A DNA stretch of 64,000 nucleotides, taken from NCBI GenBank assembly GCA_012842085.1, contig DUTM01000006.1, forward strand, positions 124,001 to 188,000, given 5' to 3'. Position numbers and translations under genes: made by a program. Positions within the stretch are counted from its first letter, which is position 1. Each line of letters starts with the position of its first letter. Shown here in pieces: positions 37,982-51,836 of this stretch. The DNA is from Mycobacteriales bacterium. GTDB taxonomy: Bacteria; Actinomycetota; Actinomycetes; Mycobacteriales; Mycobacteriaceae. The notes under the pieces are model-generated. The model made no database searches, was not told the DNA's origin, and saw only the letters and a list, made by a program, of their open reading frames with translations.

Positions 37982-38013
37982 TAAAAAAGCCCCCGCACAG
38001 TAATGCGGGGGCT
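37982..38013 (-). terminator. terminator after tRNA-His
   Basis: On the - strand AGCCCCCGCA and TGCGGGGGCT pair around TTACTG and are followed by six T, starting a few bases after the tRNA. Confidence 0.92.
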
Positions 38014-38019
38014 TGTGGG

Positions 38020-38093
38020 GGTGAGTGACGGGACTCGAACCCGCGACACCCAGGATCACAACCTGGTGCTCTACCAACTGAACTACACTCACC
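38020..38093 (-). tRNA. tRNA-His (anticodon GTG)
   Basis: GTGAGTG pairs with CACTCAC and an encoded extra 5' G (position -1, base 38093) faces the discriminator C, the hallmark of tRNA-His. The anticodon stem CCAGG/CCTGG holds TTGTGAT, anticodon GTG. CCA is not encoded. Confidence 0.95.
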
Positions 38094-38171
38094 AGAGGCC
38101 GCTTTTGGCGGCACGAACTATAGTAGCGAAGAATTACAGTTTCTGAAAATCCTTGTCGCCGTCACTTAATT

Positions 38172-38795
38172 CTAATACTCGAACGTTTCCCGAATTTGTT
38201 CGGTTGTTGGACCAGGGGAGGGAACGAACGCGACCGTCCGATAGTATTCCAACTCGCGAATGGACTCTTTAATGTCGTCCATGGCGCGGTGTGTCATACC
38301 TTTTTCCGGCTGGTTGATATAGACCTGCGGAAACCAGCGGCGGCATAGCTCTTTAATAGTTGACACATCAATCATGCGGTAGTGCAGATAGTTGTCCAGC
38401 TCCGGCATGTCACGTGCAATAAACGTTCTATCCGTCGCAATACTGTTACCGGCCAGGGGAGCAATCCGCGGTTCGGCTACGAAACGTTTAATGTACTTCA
38501 GTACCTCTTGTTCCGCTTCCGCCACAGTCACGGTGCTCTTCCGGATTTCTTCGGTCAGTCCACTCTTGGCGTGCATCTCGGTGACAACATCATCCATCGC
38601 CGCTAATTTCTCATCAGTGGTGTGGATGACGATATCTACGCCTTCCTCATCGAGAAGGTTCAGCTGGCCGTCCGTCACCAGCACCGAAATCTCCACCAGG
38701 TCGTCCGTCTCCCGGTCCAGCCCGGTCATTTCACAGTCAATCCAGACGATCCGATCCAGTTTTTCTGGCAGGTTGAGTGGATCAATCGTGGTCAT
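38172..38795 (-). CDS. orn: oligoribonuclease
   Basis: Orn degrades 2-5 nt RNA remnants and pGpG-type dinucleotides to mononucleotides. The 207-residue DEDDh exonuclease has Asp20 and Glu22 in IDCEMTGL, the [10 protein letters not shown] block with the third acidic residue and THRAMDDI near the C-terminus with the catalytic His and last Asp. The ATG overlaps the stop of the upstream reductase gene (TAATG), so they form an operon. Confidence 0.95.
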
Positions 38796-39604
38796 TAAAT
38801 ATTTCCCTCAGAAAGTTTTTTGTAGACGAATTTGTTGCCCGGCAACGTCACAGGATGTGGCAGGTAACCAATAGCGTTCATGATCTTGCCAATAATTCCC
38901 GGCACGATCCGGCGCTTATTGTCCCGCAACCCGTCCAACGACATTTGCGCAACCTCATCCGAGTTAGCCCACATGAAGCTAGGAATCATGCGGTCCAGGA
39001 AGGTTTCCTCATCCTCGGTTTTCTCCACCGGGCGCACTGGGCCAGGTGCCAGGAGGGTGACGTTAATGCCGTAATCCACCATTTCGCCACGCAGCGCTTC
39101 AGAGAAGGTGTTGACGAAGGCTTTGCTTGCGGCGTAGGTCGAGTTGTACGGAATTGGCATATTGCCGGCAGCAGAACCTACGTTCAGGATGCCACCGGAG
39201 CGGCGCTCCACCATTTGGGGAAGAACCGCCAGAATCAGTTCGTGCACCGCATTAGCGTTTAGCTGCATCTGCAGGTGCTCTTTATCCTCCGGAAGCTCCG
39301 CCAGGTTGCCGAAGGTTGCGGTGCCCGCATCGTTGCAAAGAATGTCGATCTGCATGCCGCGAATCTCATCAGTGAGTTCTTTGCGGGCAGCCGGATCCGC
39401 AAGATCGCAGGGGCGGGAGAGCGCTTTCACGCCGTAGTCAGCTTCAATTTGGGCAGCAAGCTCGTCTAGCAGGGCTTTCCGACGCGCAACTAGCACCACG
39501 TTGTATCCACGTTTCGCCAGATTAATCGCGAGGTATTGGCCAATGCCTTGGGAGGCGCCGGTGACTACCGAATAGCTATTTGATGAAGGGTTAGGTATTG
39601 CCAT
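38795..39604 (-). CDS. cmrA: SDR, mycolate reductase CmrA-like
   Basis: A 269-residue reductase that probably reduces the 3-oxo group of newly condensed alpha-alkyl beta-keto esters, the last chemical step of mycolic acid synthesis. TGASQGIG lies at 15-22, the NAG-like NDAG at 91-94, catalytic Ser144 in VGSAAGN and Tyr157/Lys161 in [11 protein letters not shown]. Blocks such as [24 protein letters not shown] and LLAPGPVR closely resemble Rv2509, which also lies next to orn in M. tuberculosis. The assignment is by remembered similarity and gene context. Confidence 0.82.
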
Positions 39605-39683
39605 AACGAATAGTCTAGGTGACCGCCGCGCGGGACTCCACAGGGTTAGGATAGCGGTAACAGGGAATGGGAGAACTACAAAG

Positions 39684-40445
39684 ATGTTGGGTCGGATTCA
39701 AGGGCGGCTAAACCGCCGTATTGTCACGTTTTTAAGCTTCGCAGCAGTCCTCATGATGAGCTGGACCGCAGGGATATCTCCGGCAACTGCCAATGCCGCA
39801 GGCGAACAAGTCCCGGCACACACTATCCCGGCAGCCTGGCAATTACGGGTGCTGAAGGACTTCGGCCTCACTTCCTATCGGGACGCCATTCCACACGCGA
39901 AAGCCCTTCCCGTCAAGGGCCGCGCCCCGAAGACCGGTTACAAACGCTCACTCTATGGAACCGCGTGGACTGATAATGCCGATGTTCTCTACGGGCACAA
40001 CGGCTGCCGCACTCGGGAAGATATCCTGCAACGCGACCTGGTAGCGGTAAGGATGCGAGAGGGAAGCAACTGCATCGTCGAAAGTGGCCTACTGCTAGAC
40101 CCCTACACCGCCGAGATTGTGTACTTTGTGCGGGGCCCGCAAACCAGTGCAGAAGTCCAGATTGACCACGTGGTGGCATTGTCTGACTCCTGGCAAAAAG
40201 GCGCCCAGCAATGGGAATTCCAGAAGCGAGTCAACTTTGCCAACGATCCCCGCAACCTCATCGCCGTCAGCGGCTACATTAACCAACAAAAAGGCGCCAG
40301 TGACACCGCCACGTGGCTACCCCCAAACAAGGCTTATCGCTGCGAATACGTCACCCGGCAAGTGGAAGTGAAACGCGTTTATGGATTGTGGGTAACACAG
40401 GCCGAACAAGACGCAATGGTGCGGGAACTCTCCAAGTGCTGCTAA
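39684..40445 (+). CDS. secreted HNH nuclease-like protein, DUF1524 family
   Basis: A 253-residue exported protein. The signal peptide ends near residue 38 (TANA). The C-terminal half has the HNH/DUF1524 core: VQIDHVVALSDSWQKGAQQW, then FANDPRNLIAVSGYINQQKGASDTATWLPPN with the His-Asn ligands. Several Cys (NGC, NC, YRC, KCC) suggest disulfides. It may degrade external DNA for nutrition or competition. It is divergent from cmrA, and GGGAG lies before the ATG. Confidence 0.85.
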   Translation: MLGRIQGRLNRRIVTFLSFAAVLMMSWTAGISPATANAAGEQVPAHTIPAAWQLRVLKDFGLTSYRDAIPHAKALPVKGRAPKTGYKRSLYGTAWTDNADVLYGHNGCRTREDILQRDLVAVRMREGSNCIVESGLLLDPYTAEIVYFVRGPQTSAEVQIDHVVALSDSWQKGAQQWEFQKRVNFANDPRNLIAVSGYINQQKGASDTATWLPPNKAYRCEYVTRQVEVKRVYGLWVTQAEQDAMVRELSKCC

Positions 40446-40508
40446 CCGATGTGTGCTGCTAACTGTTTTGCAGCACCGTCAAACGTCCACAATAACTGCA
40501 CAAATATT

Positions 40509-40535
40509 GAACCGCCCCAAACAGGTGGGGCGGTT
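40509..40535. terminator. bidirectional terminator between convergent genes
   Basis: GAACCGCCCC and GGGGCGGTTC pair around AAACAGGT. It serves both the nuclease gene and the convergent repeat-protein gene; T-runs are short. Confidence 0.75.
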
Positions 40536-40565
40536 CTGTGCGTTGAAGTTATTTAATGATGAACA

Positions 40566-41069
40566 TTAGCGCTTCCAGTTGGGGCCAGGCCTGTTTGCGC
40601 CAGGCTTGTTCTTACCAGGTTTCTGGGGACCTTGCTGGCCACGCTGACCGCGCTTGTCCTTCTTACCCTGGTTCTTTCCGCGCTTACCTTGTTGATTGGC
40701 TTGGTTGCGGCCCTGTCCCGGCTTGTTCTTGCCGTAGGTGCCATTTTGCGGTCCGCCAGTGCCATCGCGACGGGGGCCATCATTGGGGCACTGCCAATCG
40801 CCATTCGGGTTGTTCGGGTTTTGACGGGGTCCGCCAGTACCGTCGCGGCGGGGTCCGTCATTGGGGCAATCCCAATTTCCGTTACCTGGGCGGTCGCCCG
40901 GGCGAGGCGGAGTGGGTTTGTCCGGTCGCTGCAGGGCAGTCTCTTGGACGTCGCCTCCTACGGCGTTAATAGTAGGTTCCAGTGTGGCGGCGGATGCGAC
41001 GGAGGCTCCACCAATGCCCACTGCTGTCGCTGCGAGTGCGGCAATTGCCGCGTTCTTGATCTTCATCAT
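40566..41069 (-). CDS. secreted basic low-complexity protein with CPNDGPRRDGTGGP repeats
   Basis: A 167-residue protein with no recognised family. A signal peptide (IKNAAIAALAATAVGIGG, cleavage near ASA-AT) leads to a Pro/Asp segment. Two near-identical units follow, NWDCPNDGPRRDGTGGP and DWQCPNDGPRRDGTGGP, each with one Cys. The last 60 residues are a very basic Gly/Lys/Gln/Asn tail (GKNKPGQGRNQ, KRGKNQGKKDKRGQRGQQG). It could bind nucleic acid, polyanions or the wall. GGAGG lies about 13 nt before the ATG. Confidence 0.75.
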   Translation of the reverse strand: MMKIKNAAIAALAATAVGIGGASVASAATLEPTINAVGGDVQETALQRPDKPTPPRPGDRPGNGNWDCPNDGPRRDGTGGPRQNPNNPNGDWQCPNDGPRRDGTGGPQNGTYGKNKPGQGRNQANQQGKRGKNQGKKDKRGQRGQQGPQKPGKNKPGANRPGPNWKR

Positions 41070-41358
41070 GATTCTATAGTCGCCTCCGATGCTGGAAACT
41101 TGCTGTGTACTACTGTCAACCTAGCTATGAGTTTTTTATTCCGAACGGTTGCAGTCACATGGCAAGGGGTAGTGATTTCAGCTCGTTGTTTGCGGCATCG
41201 TTGCTGTTCAGAGGCTTTACTGTGATGGGGTGACGGATCGTCGCTCCTAAGTAGCTGTCAAAGGTTTTAAGCTCATTCACAGCTTCAGTGTGTGTGGTGG
41301 CGTTTAGGGTCGCGCAGTCAGGCTAAATTGCTGGCAAAAAGTGTTTCTAACAACAACA
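41070..41358. other. gene-free interval
   Basis: No gene, RNA or strong repeat is seen. Short open frames here are not backed by ribosome-binding sites or coding-like composition. Confidence 0.6.
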
Positions 41359-41400
41359 AAACCCCAGCTAGAAATCATAAAAACTATCTAACTGGGGGTT
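41359..41400 (-). terminator. terminator after tRNA-Arg
   Basis: On the - strand AACCCCCAGTTAGA and TTCTAGCTGGGGTT form a stem, followed by TTG. It begins 10 nt after the tRNA 3' end. Confidence 0.75.
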
Positions 41401-41409
41401 CTTATAAAG

Positions 41410-41482
41410 CGCCCCCAGAAGGATTCGAACCCTCGACCAATCGGGTAGAAGCCGACTGCTCTGTCCACTGAGCTATGGAGGC
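41410..41482 (-). tRNA. tRNA-Arg (anticodon TCT)
   Basis: GCCTCCA pairs with TGGGGGC. The anticodon stem GTCGG/CCGAT holds CTTCTAC, anticodon TCT. The T-loop is TTCGAAT. CCA is not encoded. Confidence 0.95.
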
Positions 41483-41685
41483 CTATCCACATTCTAGACA
41501 TGTTGTGCATAACTACATGAAACTCAAGGACTCCGAGCAATTGAGTGTGGAGGTGTGGAACATCATGGTCGTGGGTGCTGACGGCACGCGGAGCCGCTCC
41601 CAACATCTCTTCTCGCAACACGTAAGTGCTCAGCTGTCGTCGGCCCCACGCCCCTCCTAACCATCCCACTCATTGAAGGAAAGTT

Positions 41686-42060
41686 ATGTCCAACAACACC
41701 GTTATCCTTGGAAATCTTGCGAATGATCCCCAGCTGCGGGACACTGGAAACCGTCCAGTTTGCAACTTCCGAATCGCTTCCAATCGACGCTACTTCGACT
41801 CTTCTGCCCAAGAATGGAAAGAAAACGACACTCTCTTCCTGGAGGTCTCCTGCTGGGGGAACCTGGCAGAGAATGTCGCCAGCACTTTGGGTAAAGGGGA
41901 TGCCGTTATCGTGAATGGCCACCTCCGCACCGAAGAGTTCGTTCCGCAAGGCTCAGAACGCACAGTATCTGTCATTAAGTTGACGGCCACCACCGTGGGT
42001 AAAGATCTGCGCTACGGAACTGCGACTGATGGCACGCCGGAGGCGACACTCAAGCAATAG
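41686..42060 (+). CDS. ssb: short single-stranded DNA-binding protein
   Basis: A 124-residue OB-fold protein: MSNNTVILGNLANDPQLR, VCNFRIASNRRYFD, LFLEVSCWGNLAENV and GDAVIVNGHLRT. It stops at ATLKQ without the acidic DDDIPF-type tip that recruits repair and replication partners. It is therefore likely a second SSB (SsbB type) rather than the replicative one. It lies 53 nt upstream of ettA on the same strand. Confidence 0.9.
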   Translation: MSNNTVILGNLANDPQLRDTGNRPVCNFRIASNRRYFDSSAQEWKENDTLFLEVSCWGNLAENVASTLGKGDAVIVNGHLRTEEFVPQGSERTVSVIKLTATTVGKDLRYGTATDGTPEATLKQ

Positions 42061-42113
42061 CGGGTAGACTGGGCACGATAATTGCCGCAATTAGACTTCA
42101 AAGAGGTACACAC

Positions 42114-43787
42114 GTGTCTGAGTTCGTCTACACCATGCGCAACGTGCGCAAGGCTTTCGACGATAAAGTCATTTTGGACAACGTCACAATGGCTTTCTAC
42201 CACGGCGCCAAGATTGGTGTTGTGGGTCCCAACGGTGCTGGTAAGTCCAGCATTTTAAAAATTATGGCGGGACTCGAAGAGCCTTCCAACGGAGACGCCT
42301 TCGCCGATCCTGATGCCACAGTGGGCATCCTCATGCAGGAGCCCGAACTTGATGAAAATAAGACGGTTCGCGAAAACGTAGAAGACGGCTTGGGTGACGT
42401 GATGGTCAACCTGAAGCGGTACAACGAGATCGCCGAACTTATGGCCACCGAGTACTCCGATGAGCTCATGGAGGAAATGGGCGAACTGCAGGAGAAGCTC
42501 GACGTCGCGGACGCCTGGGAAATTGACTCCAAACTTGAGCAAGCCATGGACGCACTGCGCTGCCCGCCGGGAGACTCCTCCGTGAAGCATCTTTCCGGTG
42601 GCGAGAAGCGTCGAGTAGCCCTGTGCAGACTGCTGCTCCAAGCTCCCGACCTGCTTCTTCTCGACGAGCCTACAAACCACCTGGATGCCGAGTCGGTAGC
42701 CTGGTTGGAGAAATTCCTGCACGACTACAAGGGCGCAGTGCTGTGTATTACACATGACCGCTACTTCCTGGACAATATTGCGGAATGGATTTGTGAGGTT
42801 GATCGTGGTCACCTCTACCCCTATGAAGGCAACTACTCCACCTACCTGGAGAAGAAGGCAGAACGCCTGGAGATCGCGGGCCGGAAGGACGCCAAACTTC
42901 AGAAACGACTGAAGGACGAACTGGCCTGGGTTCGCTCCGGTACCAAAGCCCGTCAAGCCAAGTCGAAGGCCCGTCTGCAGCGCTATGAAGAGATGGCTGC
43001 CGAGGCGGAGAAGTACCGCAAACTGGACTTCGAAGAAATCCAGATCCCGACCCCACCGCGTCTCGGCAATGTGGTTGTGGAAGTGGATAACCTCACCAAA
43101 GGTTTCGACGGCCGCACCCTCATTAAAGACCTCTCGTTCACTCTGCCACGCAACGGCATTGTCGGCGTCATTGGCCCGAACGGCGTGGGTAAAACCACCC
43201 TCTTCAAAACCATTGTTGGGTTAGAGGAACCAGATTCTGGCACCGTTAAAGTTGGCGAAACTGTCCAGCTTTCCTACGTCGACCAGAACCGCGAACAGAT
43301 TGATCCCAATAAGACTGTGTGGGAAGTGGTGTCTGACGGCCTTGACTACATTGAGGTCGGTCAAAACGAAATGCCGTCCCGCGCCTACGTGTCTGCTTTC
43401 GGGCTCAAAGGCTCCGACCAGCAGAAGAAGGCCGGAGTCCTGTCCGGTGGTGAACGCAACCGCCTCAACTTGGCTCTCACCTTGAAGAAGGGCGGAAACC
43501 TGATTCTGCTGGACGAGCCCACCAACGACCTTGACGTAGAGACGCTCTCCTCGCTGGAGAACGCACTCACCAAGTTCCCTGGCTGTGCTGTGGTTATCTC
43601 CCACGACCGCTGGTTCTTGGACCGCACCTGTACCCACATTCTGGCCTGGGAAGGCAACGTGGAGGAAGGCAAGTGGTTCTGGTATGAGGGCAACTTCGAA
43701 GGCTACGAAGCCAACAAGATTAAGCGTCTGGGCGAAGAGGCGGCACGACCGCACCGCGTTGTTCACCGCAAATTGACGCGTGACTAG
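42114..43787 (+). CDS. ettA: energy-dependent translational throttle EttA (ABC-F)
   Basis: EttA is a soluble ABC-F ATPase that binds the ribosomal E site and gates translation according to ATP level. The 557-residue chain has two ATPase domains: GPNGAGKSS, LSGGEKRRVALC and LLLLDEPTNHLD; then GPNGVGKTT, LSGGERNRLNLA and LILLDEPTNDLD. The basic linker between them is rich in Lys and Arg (SGTKARQAKSKARLQRYEEM), and the arm inserted in domain 1 fits EttA. The start is GTG. A thioesterase gene follows after 51 nt, as in mycobacteria. Confidence 0.95.
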   Translation: MSEFVYTMRNVRKAFDDKVILDNVTMAFYHGAKIGVVGPNGAGKSSILKIMAGLEEPSNGDAFADPDATVGILMQEPELDENKTVRENVEDGLGDVMVNLKRYNEIAELMATEYSDELMEEMGELQEKLDVADAWEIDSKLEQAMDALRCPPGDSSVKHLSGGEKRRVALCRLLLQAPDLLLLDEPTNHLDAESVAWLEKFLHDYKGAVLCITHDRYFLDNIAEWICEVDRGHLYPYEGNYSTYLEKKAERLEIAGRKDAKLQKRLKDELAWVRSGTKARQAKSKARLQRYEEMAAEAEKYRKLDFEEIQIPTPPRLGNVVVEVDNLTKGFDGRTLIKDLSFTLPRNGIVGVIGPNGVGKTTLFKTIVGLEEPDSGTVKVGETVQLSYVDQNREQIDPNKTVWEVVSDGLDYIEVGQNEMPSRAYVSAFGLKGSDQQKKAGVLSGGERNRLNLALTLKKGGNLILLDEPTNDLDVETLSSLENALTKFPGCAVVISHDRWFLDRTCTHILAWEGNVEEGKWFWYEGNFEGYEANKIKRLGEEAARPHRVVHRKLTRD

Positions 43788-43838
43788 ACTGTAAATGTAG
43801 CTAAACCCCATACGGACTTCTGGAGAGGGAGAACCTTT

Positions 43839-44255
43839 ATGACGAAGCAAAACCCCAACTACTCCTGCGAGGTCTCGATTCGGTGGAGTGATTTCGACAC
43901 TTCTGGCGAGATTACCGACACCACTTTCATCGAACTCGCTCGCGAAGCCCGTATGGGGTTTATTAGAGACACCTGGCTGCGGCGCGGATTCACCGTACCC
44001 CCCATGGCGGTACGGCACCTTGAAGTCGACTATCTGAAACCACTTGCCCTGGGAATGGATAAAGCAGTGGTCAATTTGAGTGTGGAGGCTGTCGGCAAAA
44101 CCTCCTACACTCTGCGACACGAGATCACTGACACCCGGGGAGATGTTTTGGCAGTGGTCGATTGTGTGATGGTCGCTTTTGATATTGACTCCCGCCGACT
44201 AGTGCAGCTTGAGCCTTCCGTACAGTTGATGCTCACCGAGCTCAAAGGGGAATAG
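43839..44255 (+). CDS. acyl-CoA thioesterase, 4HBT hotdog fold
   Basis: A 138-residue hotdog-fold protein: IRWSDFDTSGEITDTTFIELAREAR carries the catalytic Asp region of YbgC/4HBT enzymes. Substrate is unknown but probably an acyl-CoA. GGAGAGGGAGAA precedes the ATG. The TAG stop overlaps the GTG of the methyltransferase gene, so translation is coupled. Confidence 0.87.
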   Translation: MTKQNPNYSCEVSIRWSDFDTSGEITDTTFIELAREARMGFIRDTWLRRGFTVPPMAVRHLEVDYLKPLALGMDKAVVNLSVEAVGKTSYTLRHEITDTRGDVLAVVDCVMVAFDIDSRRLVQLEPSVQLMLTELKGE

Positions 44256-45511
44256 TGACTAAAACTAACCCCATCCTTGATTGGCTACACCGAGACGACA
44301 AGATCATAGCCACCCCCGAAGGCTATGACGTGGTCTCTGCCGCCGACCTTGCCCCCGGCAAACCCCTCACAGTGGAAGAAAACGGAAAGCCGTACCGCTA
44401 CGATCCGGACCACAACACCAATCTTGTTATCCGCGGAGACGCCTACGATGCGTTAGAGGGACTGGCACAGCTGGATCCCGCAATGCCTGCTCCGCAGCTC
44501 ATCTACATTGATCCCCCATACAACACGGGCACCATCTTTAAAGACTACGATGATGGTCTCAACCACGCGGAGTGGATGGGGATGATGCAAACACGTCTGC
44601 AAGCTCTACAAGAGCAACTCGCCGACACTGGCAGCATTTGGGTTCACCTGGATGATTCCGAAATGGCATATGCCCGCGTCCTGCTAGACGAAATTTTTGG
44701 GCGCGACAGTTTTATTGCCCAGATCGTGGTCGAAATCAACCCCAAAGGCCGCCAACTGGACCGTTATTTCGCAGCCTGCCACGACTATCTCCTCGTCTAC
44801 GCCAAAAACAAAGACAAACTCAAGCTCGAACCAGGCACCACGAAGGCCGTCAACCCAGCGGACTTTCCCTTGGAAGACAAACAAGGCCGCTACCGTCTGC
44901 TGCCGCTGCGCAACACCAACAAAAAATTCAACCCCCGCACCGCCCGCACCATGGCATACCCGCTATACGCGAATGAGGGAACCGGGGAAGTGCGCACCAG
45001 CCCCTTCGACGGCGCGCAAGAGGTCATGCCTGTTTTCGGGGACCTTACCCCCGCAGTATGGCGCTGGTCTTCCGCAACCGCTTATGTGCGTCGCAACGAA
45101 CTCATTGCCCGCACCGTGCGGGGACGCAAAGGCCCACGCCTGGACGTCTACCAGATAGACCGAATGCATCCGGGGCGCCGCAAAAAGCTCAAAACCATTT
45201 GGCCATCTAAAGAAATCGGATCCTCCGACTCTGCCAAACTGGCGCTCCGCAAACAGTTCGGGGAGGACGTCCAGTTCGCCACCCCCAAACCCGAGCCACT
45301 CATTGAACGCATCATCGACTCCGCCACCGAACCTGGCGACTATGTGATGGATGTGTTCGCCGGCTCCGGCACCACCGGGGTAGTCGCAAGCCGGATGGGC
45401 CGCTACTTTGTGATGGCCGAGCGGGAAGCCGACACCGTAAAACAGCACATCCGAATGCGCCTGGATCGAGCCGGCATCGACTACCAAGAACTAGTCGTCG
45501 AGCCGCGCTAG
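44255..45511 (+). CDS. site-specific DNA methyltransferase, beta class (N6-adenine or N4-cytosine)
   Basis: A 418-residue SAM-dependent DNA methyltransferase. Catalytic motif IV is DPPY at 86-89 and the SAM-binding motif I FAGSG at 368-372. The order (IV, target-recognition region, I) defines the beta class to which type III Mod and many solitary enzymes belong. The middle part (about 170-330) is the likely target recognition domain. No restriction subunit is adjacent, so it is an orphan. The GTG start overlaps the thioesterase stop, and the 3' end overlaps the convergent pepN by 21 nt. Confidence 0.88.
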   Translation: MTKTNPILDWLHRDDKIIATPEGYDVVSAADLAPGKPLTVEENGKPYRYDPDHNTNLVIRGDAYDALEGLAQLDPAMPAPQLIYIDPPYNTGTIFKDYDDGLNHAEWMGMMQTRLQALQEQLADTGSIWVHLDDSEMAYARVLLDEIFGRDSFIAQIVVEINPKGRQLDRYFAACHDYLLVYAKNKDKLKLEPGTTKAVNPADFPLEDKQGRYRLLPLRNTNKKFNPRTARTMAYPLYANEGTGEVRTSPFDGAQEVMPVFGDLTPAVWRWSSATAYVRRNELIARTVRGRKGPRLDVYQIDRMHPGRRKKLKTIWPSKEIGSSDSAKLALRKQFGEDVQFATPKPEPLIERIIDSATEPGDYVMDVFAGSGTTGVVASRMGRYFVMAEREADTVKQHIRMRLDRAGIDYQELVVEPR

Positions 45512-48549: not shown

Positions 48550-49413
48550 ATGGCGTTGGATCAAGCCGAATGGAAGCGGCTCGAAGACAAAGCCCATGAA
48601 CTCAGGAAACTAACTCTTGAGACTGTCATCTGGGCGGGCTCTGGCCACATTGGTGGTTCGCTTTCGGCAATGGACGTCTTAACGGCTCTTTATTACCACG
48701 AAATGAACTTTAAGGGTGACCAGCTCGATGACCCGGATCGCGACCGGTTCGTCCTGTCAAAGGGTCACATTGGTGTCGGTTTTGCACCGGTGCTAGCAGA
48801 CCTTGGTTGCTTCCCGAAAGATTGGCTAAAGGAATATAACCACACCCTATCCCCACTCGGTATGCACCCCAGTGCAGAGATGGTCCCGGGTGTTGAAGTA
48901 TCAACTGGTTCACTCGGCCACGGCCTTTCGGTCGCAGTAGGTATGGCAATGGGCGCCAAGCTTGGAAAGAAGGACTGGCGCACCTACACCCTCCTCGGCG
49001 ACGGTGAGTGCTGTGAGGGTTCCGTTTGGGAAGGCGCAATGGCTGCCTCCAACTTCAAACTGGACAACCTAGTAGCCATTGTTGACCGCAACGCCCTCAT
49101 GATGGACGGCCCGACGGAAGACGTAATGGCCATGGAGCCCTTCGCTGAGAAGTGGAAGGCCTTTGGCTGGGAGGTCTTCGACATCGACGGAAACAACATT
49201 TCTGAGATTGTCGATGCCCTGGATAAGGCAAAGGAAACCAAGGGTAAGCCCTCCGTTATTATCGCCAACACCACCAAGGGTGCGGGCATCGACTTTATCT
49301 CTGGAGATTACAAGTGGCACTACGGTGCATTCGCTGATGATCTCGCCGATAAAGCCCGCGAAAGCCTTGACCGCTACCACGATGAGCGGCTAGCTCGAGT
49401 GAAGGGAGCCTAA
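48550..49413 (+). CDS. transketolase-like enzyme, N-terminal (TPP-binding) subunit
   Basis: A 287-residue protein equivalent to the first third of a transketolase. It contains GHIGGSLSAMDVL, LSKGHIGVGFAPVLADLG, GSLGHGLSVAVGMA and the TPP/Mg motif GDGECCEGSVWEGAMAASNF with LVAIVDRN. It needs the C-terminal subunit encoded next to it to form an active site. ATG 48550 with AAGGAG upstream is chosen over a longer frame. The real substrate is unknown: split enzymes are used both as ordinary transketolases and for special sugars such as apulose 4-phosphate. Confidence 0.9.
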   Translation: MALDQAEWKRLEDKAHELRKLTLETVIWAGSGHIGGSLSAMDVLTALYYHEMNFKGDQLDDPDRDRFVLSKGHIGVGFAPVLADLGCFPKDWLKEYNHTLSPLGMHPSAEMVPGVEVSTGSLGHGLSVAVGMAMGAKLGKKDWRTYTLLGDGECCEGSVWEGAMAASNFKLDNLVAIVDRNALMMDGPTEDVMAMEPFAEKWKAFGWEVFDIDGNNISEIVDALDKAKETKGKPSVIIANTTKGAGIDFISGDYKWHYGAFADDLADKARESLDRYHDERLARVKGA

Positions 49414-49418
49414 GAGTA

Positions 49419-50426
49419 ATGGCTGGTATGACTTATACGGCGGAAGCACAGGTCGACCTGTCAACTGCCGAAATTTACGGCCGCACGCTTACTGAGCTTG
49501 CTGCCGAACACGACGACGTTGTGGGTCTGTCCGCAGACCTTGCGAAATCGACCAAGATTGGTCTGCTGGGTGAAAAATACCCCGAGCGTTTCTTCAACGT
49601 CGGTATTGCAGAACAAAACATGATGGGTATCGCCGCTGGCCTCGCAGCCGCTGGCTACACCCCGTTCGTCTCCACTTTCGCAGCATTCGCTTCGATGCGC
49701 GCCTGTGAGCAGGTCCGCACCGACCTTTGCTACGGAAACGCGAACGTCAAGATTATCGCTACCCACACGGGCACCTCCTTCGGCCAAGCCGGTACCACTC
49801 ACCACTGCACCGAGGACATCGCAATTATGCGGTCCTTCGCACGCATGGTTGTGCTGAACCCGGCTGACGGTATGTCCACCGCACAGGCCGTTGAGGCCGC
49901 CTACGAGCATGAGGGACCGGTATATATTCGTATTAACCGTGGCTTTGACCAGCCGGTTTACGATAAGCCGATTGAGGACTTCGCCATTGGTAAGTCCAAC
50001 ACCCTCCGTGACGGCACCGACCTCACCATCATCGCCTGTGGTGCTGGTGTCTGGCGCGCTGTCCAGGCTGCCGACATTCTGAAGGCCGAGGATCAGCTGT
50101 CGATCCGAGTTATCGACATGTACTCCTTGAAGCCGATCGACGAAGAAGCCATTCTCAATGCTGTGGCAGAAACTCGCCGTGTTCTCACGGTTGAGGACCA
50201 CAACATTATTGGTGGTCTCGGAACTGCAGTCGGCGACGTTGCTGCCAAGGGCGGCAAGGGCTTCGCATTCAGGAAACTGGGTATTCCCGACACCTACTCC
50301 ATCATTGGACAGCCGGAGGATATTATTTCCCACTACGGCTTCGACGAGAACGGCATCGTTGATACCGTCCGCGACATGATGAAGATCGAGGTCGAGGAAG
50401 ACGACGACTGGGATGATGAGGTCTAA
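49419..50426 (+). CDS. transketolase-like enzyme, C-terminal subunit
   Basis: A 335-residue pyrimidine-binding plus C-terminal domain of a split transketolase. Visible are NVGIAEQNMMGIAAGLA with the conserved Glu that activates TPP, the STFAAFASMRACEQVR helix, THTGTSFGQAGTTHHCTEDIA and the C-terminal VIDMYSLKPIDEEAI block. An unusual acidic tail ends EVEEDDDWDDEV. It starts 5 nt after the N-terminal subunit, and the SCP2-like gene starts 2 nt after its stop. Confidence 0.9.
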   Translation: MAGMTYTAEAQVDLSTAEIYGRTLTELAAEHDDVVGLSADLAKSTKIGLLGEKYPERFFNVGIAEQNMMGIAAGLAAAGYTPFVSTFAAFASMRACEQVRTDLCYGNANVKIIATHTGTSFGQAGTTHHCTEDIAIMRSFARMVVLNPADGMSTAQAVEAAYEHEGPVYIRINRGFDQPVYDKPIEDFAIGKSNTLRDGTDLTIIACGAGVWRAVQAADILKAEDQLSIRVIDMYSLKPIDEEAILNAVAETRRVLTVEDHNIIGGLGTAVGDVAAKGGKGFAFRKLGIPDTYSIIGQPEDIISHYGFDENGIVDTVRDMMKIEVEEDDDWDDEV

Positions 50427-50428
50427 GG

Positions 50429-51241
50429 ATGAGCGACGCTGACGATATTCGTTATTCAACAGTTGTCTTCTTGAAGGCAGTACTACCGACTTTGAAGACG
50501 CTTGTTCAGGCAAAGCCGGGCCTTCAGAAGCTGTGGGGTAGCACGAACGCCATCGTCCAAATCAGTGCCTGTGCACCCGATGGAGAATTCGACCACAACG
50601 GCAAACTCAAGGATGCTATGCACTTTGAGATTGTCGACGGCAACCTACAGCCGCGGTTGAAAGGCCATCAGGATCCCGACTTCGAGATTGAATTCAAGAA
50701 CCGCGAGGACCTGGTCACCTTCTTCAAGGGCGGACTCGCTCTGCCAGTATTCCGGGGCTTCTTCAAGCACCCGACCCTACTGGTGAAGATGATTGTCACG
50801 CTACTCACACTGTCCGGCCTCATGAGCGCCGAAGAGCCTCCAAAGGATCCGGACGATGCAGCCCTTCTCACGAAGATGATGTTCTACCTCCTGTCGACTG
50901 GTATTTCCCAGCTCAACAAGGTTGGACACCCCGTCTTCAAGGACTGGGCTAAGAAACAGCCCGACCGTGTGTTCCAGCTCTCTGTGCAGGGAGAACCGGA
51001 CATTTCAGCGTACGTACGTGCCAAGGGCGGAAGGACCAAGGCTAGCCGCGGTCTCTACACCCGTTCACGTCCGTTCTTCGAACTGTCTTTCGACACCATA
51101 CCGTCAGCCCTAGGAACCCTCCTAGAGATCGACGACATGGTTGAGGCAACTGGGTCCGGCAAGATTATCATGGCCGGCGCACCCGAAATTGGCGCCATCT
51201 TTGGCGACCTACTCCTCACGATCGGAGGATACGCAAAGTGA
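50429..51241 (+). CDS. SCP2 sterol-carrier-like protein
   Basis: A 270-residue cytoplasmic protein with an SCP2-type lipid-binding fold. HFEIVDGNLQPRLKGHQDPDFEIEF and NREDLVTFFKGG are the family's strand-turn-helix features. A hydrophobic helix pair (LLVKMIVTLLTLSGLM, near 116-131) could line a lipid tunnel. The C-terminal half (about 175-270) appears to hold a second related segment beginning FQLSVQGEPDISAYV. It sits in the operon, overlapping the VOC gene by 4 nt (GTGA). It might carry a hydrophobic substrate for the transketolase pair; this is inference. Confidence 0.72.
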   Translation: MSDADDIRYSTVVFLKAVLPTLKTLVQAKPGLQKLWGSTNAIVQISACAPDGEFDHNGKLKDAMHFEIVDGNLQPRLKGHQDPDFEIEFKNREDLVTFFKGGLALPVFRGFFKHPTLLVKMIVTLLTLSGLMSAEEPPKDPDDAALLTKMMFYLLSTGISQLNKVGHPVFKDWAKKQPDRVFQLSVQGEPDISAYVRAKGGRTKASRGLYTRSRPFFELSFDTIPSALGTLLEIDDMVEATGSGKIIMAGAPEIGAIFGDLLLTIGGYAK

Positions 51242-51774
51242 GAATCCCATTTGTTAGCCCCAAGATTCACGGGCTTCTACATGCGGGCGTCACAGTCACC
51301 GACTTTGAGGCCGCAGTCAAGTGGTATCACGAAAACTTCAACTGCTTGCTTGTCAGCGAGCAGTGGATTAAGGGCGAAGACGCTGAGGCTCTGGCCGACC
51401 TTTACGGCACCCACGGCCTCACCATCCGTCTCGGGTTCATGCGGACCCCAGATGGTGGCGTACTGGAAATCTTCGAATTCCAGCCCAAGGGAGAGAAGAT
51501 TCCGCTGGAGTGGAACCGTCCTGGATGGACCCACGCCTGCATCTCCGTACGCAACGTCCCCAAGATTCGTGAAAAACTTGAGTCCCGTGGTGTTGAGTTC
51601 GTCACCGACACTCAGCACACCGCCGGTGCCGACTGGGCCTTCCTCAAGGACCCGGATGGCAACCTGCTCGAAATCATGGACCTTGGTGTAGCACAGCGAC
51701 TTCCGCTGAAGTGGCTGGGCTGGACCCAAGGCCTCATCATGAAGATGGGCAAATGCAAGTCCTACTACGAATAA
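51238..51774 (+). CDS. VOC-fold metalloenzyme (glyoxalase/dioxygenase superfamily)
   Basis: A 178-residue vicinal-oxygen-chelate protein. Two beta-alpha-beta-beta-beta units start with HAGVTVTDFEAAVKWYHENF and HACISVRNVPKIREKL. Likely metal ligands are His15, Glu in VLEIFEF, His in WTHACISV and Glu in LLEIMDL. Reaction type (lyase, epimerase or dioxygenase) cannot be read. The GTG start overlaps the SCP2 stop. A strong terminator closes the four-gene operon. Confidence 0.85.
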   Translation: MRIPFVSPKIHGLLHAGVTVTDFEAAVKWYHENFNCLLVSEQWIKGEDAEALADLYGTHGLTIRLGFMRTPDGGVLEIFEFQPKGEKIPLEWNRPGWTHACISVRNVPKIREKLESRGVEFVTDTQHTAGADWAFLKDPDGNLLEIMDLGVAQRLPLKWLGWTQGLIMKMGKCKSYYE

Positions 51775-51796: not shown

Positions 51797-51836
51797 ACTA
51801 AACTGGCCCCCGCCATTCCGGTGGGGGCCAGTTTTT
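51797..51836 (+). terminator. terminator of the transketolase operon
   Basis: AAACTGGCCCCCGCC and GGTGGGGGCCAGTTT form a strong stem closed by ATTCC, with a following T-run. Confidence 0.93.

What the first reader, a model, noticed from the sequence alone, without database searches (positions are those of the whole stretch)
48550..51774. Four-gene operon: split transketolase + SCP2-like carrier + VOC enzyme
Two transketolase-like subunits, an SCP2-type lipid-binding protein and a VOC metalloenzyme are packed with gaps of 5 nt, 2 nt and a 4-nt overlap, and closed by one terminator. A carbohydrate carboligase joined to a hydrophobic-ligand carrier and a metalloenzyme is not a pathway I know. 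It lies between pepN and the DsbA-like/rpiB pair, a place where I recall no such genes in mycobacteria, so it looks inserted. It might make or break an acyloin or a sugar-lipid, or act on a dedicated pentose phosphate. The acidic tail on the C subunit and the Cys pair in GDGECCEG are unusual.
Basis: partly seen in the sequence, partly recalled or inferred. Interest (0 to 1): 0.68.

Follow-up and report, generated by a model that had tools for sequence, protein, structure and literature searches.

The report
Transketolase-based sphingoid-base pathway
Four genes in this actinobacterial genome belong to an apparently undescribed six-gene module, shared by many anaerobic bacteria, that probably takes apart (or builds) the long-chain amino-alcohol backbone of ceramide-type lipids, using an aminotransferase and a sugar-type enzyme re-tuned for fats.

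Summary
The operon is real: TktN, TktC, a tandem-SCP2 lipid carrier and a VOC metalloenzyme, 48550-51774, closed by a strong terminator. It is not the housekeeping transketolase: a complete congeneric genome has the pair plus a full-length tkt. The usual order elsewhere is SCP2a - class III aminotransferase - TktN - TktC - SCP2b - VOC (- TetR). Here SCP2a and the aminotransferase sit together about 116 kb away. The aminotransferase's nearest solved relative is FumI, which deaminates a sphinganine analogue (hydrolysed fumonisin). TktC keeps the catalytic and C1-OH residues but loses the acceptor Asp (E. coli D469) in all members and the phosphate Arg in most; it has an acidic Trp tail wherever it adjoins SCP2b. 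In Actinomycetaceae the cluster co-occurs with ceramidase-family proteins (9 of 10 versus 2 of 141). Best reading: sphingoid base -> 2-keto-1,3-diol -> fatty aldehyde plus a C2 unit passed to a sugar phosphate. Substrate and direction are inferred; the ceramidase catalytic Ser is altered in most partners, and VOC-less clusters lack PF04734. No such pathway appeared in the literature searched.

The parts
48550..49413 (+). TktN: thiamine-diphosphate-binding subunit of a lipid-type split transketolase
   Evidence: PF00456 5e-44; relatives align from residue 1; His ligands, GDG and Asn of the ThDP site kept
49419..50426 (+). TktC: pyrimidine and C-terminal subunit
   Evidence: PF02779, PF02780; catalytic Glu kept, human D424 -> Ala, R318 -> Ala
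49782..49808 (+). TktC motif GQAGTTHHC (residues 122-130), in place of the sugar-transketolase motif GEDGASHQ
   Evidence: alignment with human transketolase and ordinary split transketolases
50382..50423 (+). acidic Trp-containing tail of TktC (KIEVEEDDDWDDEV)
   Evidence: present in every complete TktC adjoining SCP2b, absent from ordinary split transketolases; W331 and D333 invariant in 21 members; low confidence in the model
50429..51241 (+). SCP2b: tandem SCP2-fold protein, probable lipid carrier
   Evidence: model and fold comparison; conserved family alignment A1
51238..51774 (+). VOC metalloenzyme with a glyoxalase I-type His-Glu-His-Glu set; proposed ketol epimerase
   Evidence: PF00903; ligands conserved in 10 relatives, one (L014) truncated or frame-broken
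51800..51834 (+). intrinsic terminator closing the operon
   Evidence: 15-bp hairpin with T-run

Best explanation
The four genes are the second half of a conserved six-gene module for the long-chain 2-amino-1,3-diol (sphingoid) backbone. Proposed steps in the catabolic direction: (1) an exported ceramidase-family amidase frees a sphingoid base [inferred]; (2) SCP2a and SCP2b carry the lipid in the cytosol [fold of SCP2b shown, ligand inferred]; (3) the FumI-like aminotransferase, encoded at a second locus of this genome, moves the 2-amino group to a keto acid such as pyruvate, giving a 1,3-dihydroxy-alkan-2-one [relationship to FumI shown, substrate inferred]; (4) the VOC metalloenzyme sets the configuration at C3 through an enediolate, because transketolases use 3S ketols whereas those from natural sphinganine would be 3R [inferred]; (5) TktN/TktC cleaves C2-C3 by normal transketolase chemistry, releasing a fatty aldehyde and moving the two-carbon ketol to a sugar phosphate [family and catalytic residues shown, lipid substrate inferred]. 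The acidic tail of TktC is proposed to dock on the basic stretch of SCP2b and channel the lipid [inferred]. The reactions are reversible, so some lineages may run them as a synthesis.
For: Conserved order SCP2a-AT-TktN-TktC-SCP2b-VOC in several phyla. SCP2a+AT present at a second locus in the window genome and its congener. AT found elsewhere in 19 of 23 genomes with a TktNC-SCP2b locus lacking it, versus 2 of 23 ordinary split-transketolase genomes, one of which has the whole cluster. AT closest to FumI (304 bits, next 150), which deaminates a sphinganine analogue, and sharing its PGGxYGH start. Acceptor Asp lost in all members, phosphate Arg in most, C1-OH His and catalytic Glu kept; E. coli transketolase evolved towards non-polar aldehydes carries a change at the same Asp, D469T. 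Tandem SCP2 fold. VOC His-Glu-His-Glu set. Ceramidase-family proteins in 9 of 10 cluster-bearing versus 2 of 141 other Actinomycetaceae.
Against: No activity was measured. PF04734 is absent from 20 of 20 VOC-less cluster genomes and common in Mycobacteriales without the cluster (20 of 59). Its catalytic Ser is Thr in the window genome, Val in Mobiluncus and Arcanobacterium, Ala in one spirochaete. AT is only about 38% identical to FumI, and fumonisin lacks the C1-OH. R474 and other phosphate ligands are kept. VOC is missing from most clusters. The co-occurrence tests ignore phylogeny.
Confidence: 0.5

Rival explanations
1. Same chemistry in the synthetic direction: TktN/TktC adds a two-carbon ketol to a fatty aldehyde, the VOC enzyme epimerises the ketol, and the aminotransferase makes a sphinganine-like amino-diol without serine palmitoyltransferase, handed on by the SCP2 proteins as a membrane-lipid precursor.
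For: Reactions are reversible; VOC-less lineages have no PF04734 ceramidase (0 of 20); a cytosolic carrier pair suits either direction; one FumI-like AT lies beside a YhhN (lysoplasmalogenase-family) gene.
Against: Ceramidase-family co-occurrence in Actinomycetaceae; FumI works as a deaminase; an ALDH gene follows SCP2b in L057 and a PF03417 Ntn-hydrolase follows TktC in L050, both easier to fit to breakdown; no ceramide-forming gene seen in the clusters.
Confidence: 0.2
2. A steroid side-chain enzyme like DesAB (steroid-17,20-desmolase): the split transketolase removes a two-carbon ketol from a steroid, with the SCP2 proteins as sterol carriers.
For: DesAB shows that a split transketolase can act on a lipid ketol (PMC12876203); the SCP2 fold includes sterol binders.
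Against: The desC/desD/desE partners of the des operon are not part of the module; a FumI-like aminotransferase has no role in steroid side-chain cleavage; many hosts are free-living.
Confidence: 0.06
3. A dedicated sugar or sugar-phosphate transketolase (apulose-4-phosphate, sulfofructose SqwGH or similar) with an accessory carrier.
For: Family membership; R474, S345 and H416 equivalents kept.
Against: Asp and usually Arg of the sugar-phosphate site lost in the whole clade; SCP2 tandem and FumI-like AT as constant partners; no sugar kinase, isomerase or sulfoglycolytic genes as constant neighbours.
Confidence: 0.06
4. It is simply the housekeeping transketolase, in two pieces.
For: No other PF00456 match in the window's own assembly.
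Against: That assembly is only 85% complete; the complete congener G001 carries the pair and a full-length tkt (E 3.5e-139); the active-site residues differ.
Confidence: 0.02

Closest known systems
Split transketolase of Carboxydothermus hydrogenoformans (6yaj/6yak)
   Same: Two-gene architecture, ThDP site, catalytic Glu, closest solved structure by sequence
   Different: It keeps the IATRE and GEDGASHQ residues of sugar transketolases and shows no acidic tail in the alignment; the window pair has A and GQAGTTHH
FumI aminopentol aminotransferase, Sphingopyxis sp. MTA144 (6hbs)
   Same: Closest solved relative of the module's aminotransferase; shares the PGG-x-YGH start and the catalytic Lys region
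   Different: About 38% identity; FumI substrate lacks the C1-OH; no transketolase partner described for FumI in what I read
DesAB steroid-17,20-desmolase, Clostridium scindens
   Same: Split transketolase that acts on a lipid ketol (PMC12876203)
   Different: des operon partners absent; aminotransferase and SCP2 partners present; sequences could not be compared here
Sphingosine-1-phosphate lyase route (own knowledge)
   Same: Cleaves the same C2-C3 bond of a sphingoid base to a fatty aldehyde
   Different: PLP lyase on a phosphorylated base giving phosphoethanolamine; here ThDP chemistry on a deaminated, unphosphorylated ketol is proposed
SCP2 sterol/lipid carrier proteins
   Same: Same fold in both halves of SCP2b
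   Different: Tandem, below Pfam detection, with a conserved basic stretch and TktC as constant neighbour

Membership tests
Transketolase (TK-like ThDP enzymes) | ThDP/metal motif GDG...N, C1-OH His residues, catalytic Glu | tested here: met
   human H37, H77, H110, D155, N185, H258, E366, H416 equivalents all kept
Transketolase, sugar-phosphate type | acceptor Asp (human D424, E. coli D469) and phosphate Arg (human R318) | tested here: not met
   both are Ala in the window TktC; Asp absent in the whole SCP2b-linked clade
SCP2 | SCP2 fold | tested here: met
   Z 11.7 and 9.5 for the two halves
SCP2 | Pfam PF02036 gathering score | tested here: not met
   SCP2b no hit; SCP2a 20.9 bits against 21.3
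FumI-type aminopentol aminotransferase (partner gene) | closest characterised relative, class III fold, catalytic Lys, PGGxYGH start | tested here: met
   304 bits to 6hbs, next 150; motifs
FumI-type aminopentol aminotransferase (partner gene) | deamination of a sphingoid base or analogue | not testable with these tools
   needs an assay
Glutamate-1-semialdehyde aminomutase (HemL) | NCBIfam hemL cut-off and PGGVNSPVR substrate motif | tested here: not met
   195 bits against 527; PGGIYGHLG instead
VOC metalloenzymes (glyoxalase I / epimerase type) | His-Glu-His-Glu metal ligands | tested here: met
   conserved in the window protein and relatives
DesAB steroid-17,20-desmolase | operon partners desC/desD or desE | tested here: not met
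   none in the window operon and not a constant neighbour elsewhere
DesAB steroid-17,20-desmolase | sequence clade with C. scindens DesA/DesB | not tested
Sulfo-transketolase SqwGH / apulose-4-phosphate transketolase | sequence clade and pathway neighbours | tested here: inconclusive
   no sulfoglycolytic or apiose genes as constant neighbours; reference sequences not compared
Neutral ceramidase (associated PF04734 proteins) | PF04734 gathering score over the full model | tested here: met
   three full copies in the window genome; 409 bits to the solved neutral ceramidase 2zws
Neutral ceramidase (associated PF04734 proteins) | catalytic Ser of the NxG(D/N)xSPN motif | tested here: not met
   Thr in the window genome, Val in Mobiluncus and Arcanobacterium, Ala in G506; Ser only in Vallitalea

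The most novel reading that the evidence does not exclude
A kinase- and S1P-lyase-independent pathway in which sphingoid bases are deaminated and then cleaved (or built) by a lipid-accepting transketolase that passes the two-carbon unit straight into the pentose-phosphate pool, with channelling through a tandem SCP2 carrier docked on the transketolase's acidic tail; present in several bacterial phyla, including animal-associated bacteria.
Probability: 0.4. Interest if true: 0.88.

Novelty: new variant of a known kind. Interest (0 to 1): 0.72.

Why it matters
If right, it shows how anaerobic gut, genital-tract and skin-type bacteria could use (or make) sphingoid lipids without the known lyase. 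It offers a natural lipid-accepting transketolase altered at the same position as in directed evolution, links sphingolipid to sugar-phosphate metabolism, and bears on how microbes remodel host ceramides. The module can be recognised from sequence alone (TktC motif and tail, FumI-like aminotransferase, SCP2a/b), so it can be scored in genomes and metagenomes.

Tried and rejected
Housekeeping tkt: rejected on G001. Plasmid origin: no SCP2b match in 72,556 plasmids. Base composition as evidence of insertion: GC 0.52-0.56 across the cluster, like its flanks, so uninformative; the transfer claim rests on distribution and the tree. Genes next to the separated aminotransferase pairs were mixed (IMPDH, FGGY kinase, class V aminotransferase, M19 dipeptidase) and gave no constant extra step. 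PF04734 in Mycobacteriales as support: rejected, because 20 of 59 relatives without the cluster have it. Literature searches for a transketolase/sphinganine or sphingoid-degradation pathway found nothing matching; the library holds open-licence PMC papers only. L072, a split transketolase beside a Zn-dehydrogenase, was considered as a possible DesAB but its neighbours (aldehyde dehydrogenase, sugar-type ABC transporter) look like sugar metabolism. SqwGH and apulose transketolase were considered and not compared by sequence.

Full report
What is there. The four ORFs, their spacing and the terminator are as described. TktN and TktC are transketolase subunits and the fourth gene is a VOC enzyme. 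The third has no Pfam or NCBIfam match, but a confident model (pLDDT 95.8) is a tandem of two SCP2-fold domains. Its congener G001 has a single 1.86 Mb contig; from genome size and relatives the genus is probably Lawsonella, a human-associated actinobacterium (inference, own knowledge).

It is not the housekeeping enzyme. The window's assembly (85% complete) shows no other PF00456, but the complete congener has the pair in the same place beside the DsbA-like gene (L005) and, elsewhere, a full-length transketolase.

It is conserved, and larger than four genes. A scan of genome contigs with TktC returned loci from Spirochaetota, Bacillota, Actinomycetota, Thermodesulfobacteriota and others. In most of the best fifty, TktN-TktC is followed by SCP2b, and in eight of them also by VOC. 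Upstream there is often a class III aminotransferase and a second SCP2-like protein, SCP2a, and sometimes a TetR gene downstream. In the window's genome the SCP2a-aminotransferase pair is at G000:C77:54455-56494, about 116 kb from the window's cluster on the same contig, between phosphomannomutase- and mannose-6-phosphate-isomerase-like genes, and likewise in G001. Of 23 genomes whose TktNC-SCP2b locus lacks an adjacent aminotransferase, 19 have it elsewhere at 38% identity or more. Of 23 genomes with other split transketolases, 2 do, and one of those (G089) turned out to carry the complete cluster (Fisher p below 1e-6). The pairing is therefore not incidental.

What the aminotransferase says. 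Its best solved match is FumI (6hbs, 304 bits; next, GSA aminomutase, 150 bits). FumI transfers the 2-amino group of hydrolysed fumonisin B1, a sphinganine analogue, to pyruvate (PMC2933618). Most of the module's enzymes share the P-x-G-x-YGH start with FumI and not the PGGVNSPVR of GSA aminomutase, and they miss the HemL cut-off widely.

What the transketolase says. Against human transketolase, the C1-OH His residues, H258, H416 and the catalytic Glu are kept. The acceptor Asp (human D424, E. coli D469) is Ala in every SCP2b-linked member, and the phosphate-binding R318 is Ala in most (it is Arg in termite treponemes and some others). HGK becomes HYG in nearly all, and GEDGASHQ becomes GxAG(T/S)THH. 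Ordinary split transketolases from the same scan keep the sugar motif. In E. coli a change of the same Asp (D469T) is part of variants evolved from phosphorylated towards non-polar aliphatic and aromatic aldehydes (PMC5073344). A 1,3-dihydroxy-2-ketone, the product of deaminating a sphingoid base, has exactly the ketose end-group a transketolase needs (established chemistry). Every complete TktC next to SCP2b ends in an acidic Trp tail such as DFEADENWEDEV; ordinary split transketolases do not. W331 and D333 are invariant in 21 members and the tail is low-confidence in the model. SCP2b has a conserved basic stretch. Docking between the two is a proposal.

What the company says. PF04734 (neutral ceramidase family) was found in 8 of 10 VOC-bearing cluster genomes, 0 of 20 VOC-less ones and 0 of 12 control genomes. 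In 151 Actinomycetaceae, 9 of 10 cluster genomes have it and 2 of 141 others. The ten SCP2b sequences there are 53-96% identical and all lie in TktN-TktC-SCP2b-VOC order, so several lineages are involved, though the test ignores phylogeny. Two limits: PF04734 is common in Mycobacteriales without the cluster, and its catalytic Ser is replaced in the window's genome, Mobiluncus, Arcanobacterium and one spirochaete. Two of the window genome's three copies begin with twin-arginine export signals (read by eye).

Origin. SCP2b is absent from 395 other sampled Actinomycetota genomes and from all 59 sampled relatives outside the genus. The window TktC groups with Mobiluncus and Arcanobacterium (100/97), members of another order. 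Horizontal acquisition is the simplest reading. Composition does not stand out.

Verdict. Shown: a conserved, phylum-hopping module that joins a lipid-type split transketolase to a FumI-like aminotransferase and two SCP2-type proteins. Inferred, at about one in two: it breaks down sphingoid bases. About one in five: it makes them. Less likely: steroids or sugars. I did not find it described in the open-licence literature searched.

Noticed in passing
window 44255-45511 (+): A solitary N6/N4 DNA methyltransferase (PF01555) between an ABC-F (EttA-like) gene at 42114-43787 and pepN; no restriction partner seen among ORFs of 250 aa or more at 38000-45400.
   Followed up: no
L182:6719-8836, L182:13821-15914, L184:6215-8365(-): Three neutral-ceramidase-family (PF04734) genes in the window's 2.2 Mb genome, two with twin-arginine-type signal sequences, with Thr where the P. 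aeruginosa enzyme has its catalytic Ser.
   Followed up: partly
L159:308-3263: A more distant FumI-like aminotransferase followed directly by an acetolactate-synthase-type ThDP enzyme: another aminotransferase/carboligase pair.
   Followed up: no
L156:6160-8412: A FumI-like aminotransferase convergent with a YhhN-family gene (family that includes lysoplasmalogenases, which release fatty aldehydes).
   Followed up: no
L050:7121-8890 and L057:7812-9191: A PF03417 Ntn-hydrolase follows TktC in L050 and an aldehyde dehydrogenase follows SCP2b in L057; both could serve lipid-amide breakdown.
   Followed up: partly
L008:9188-12553(-) and L014:9347-12961(-): A spirochaete and Vallitalea share, downstream of the cluster, racemase-like and MutL/GlmL-like genes that resemble ornithine fermentation (by eye), suggesting transfer of a larger block.
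   Followed up: no
L051, L058, L059: A Christensenella-type branch inside the lipid-type TktC clade has no adjacent SCP2b, no acidic tail and no FumI-like aminotransferase in the genome; its substrate is open.
   Followed up: partly
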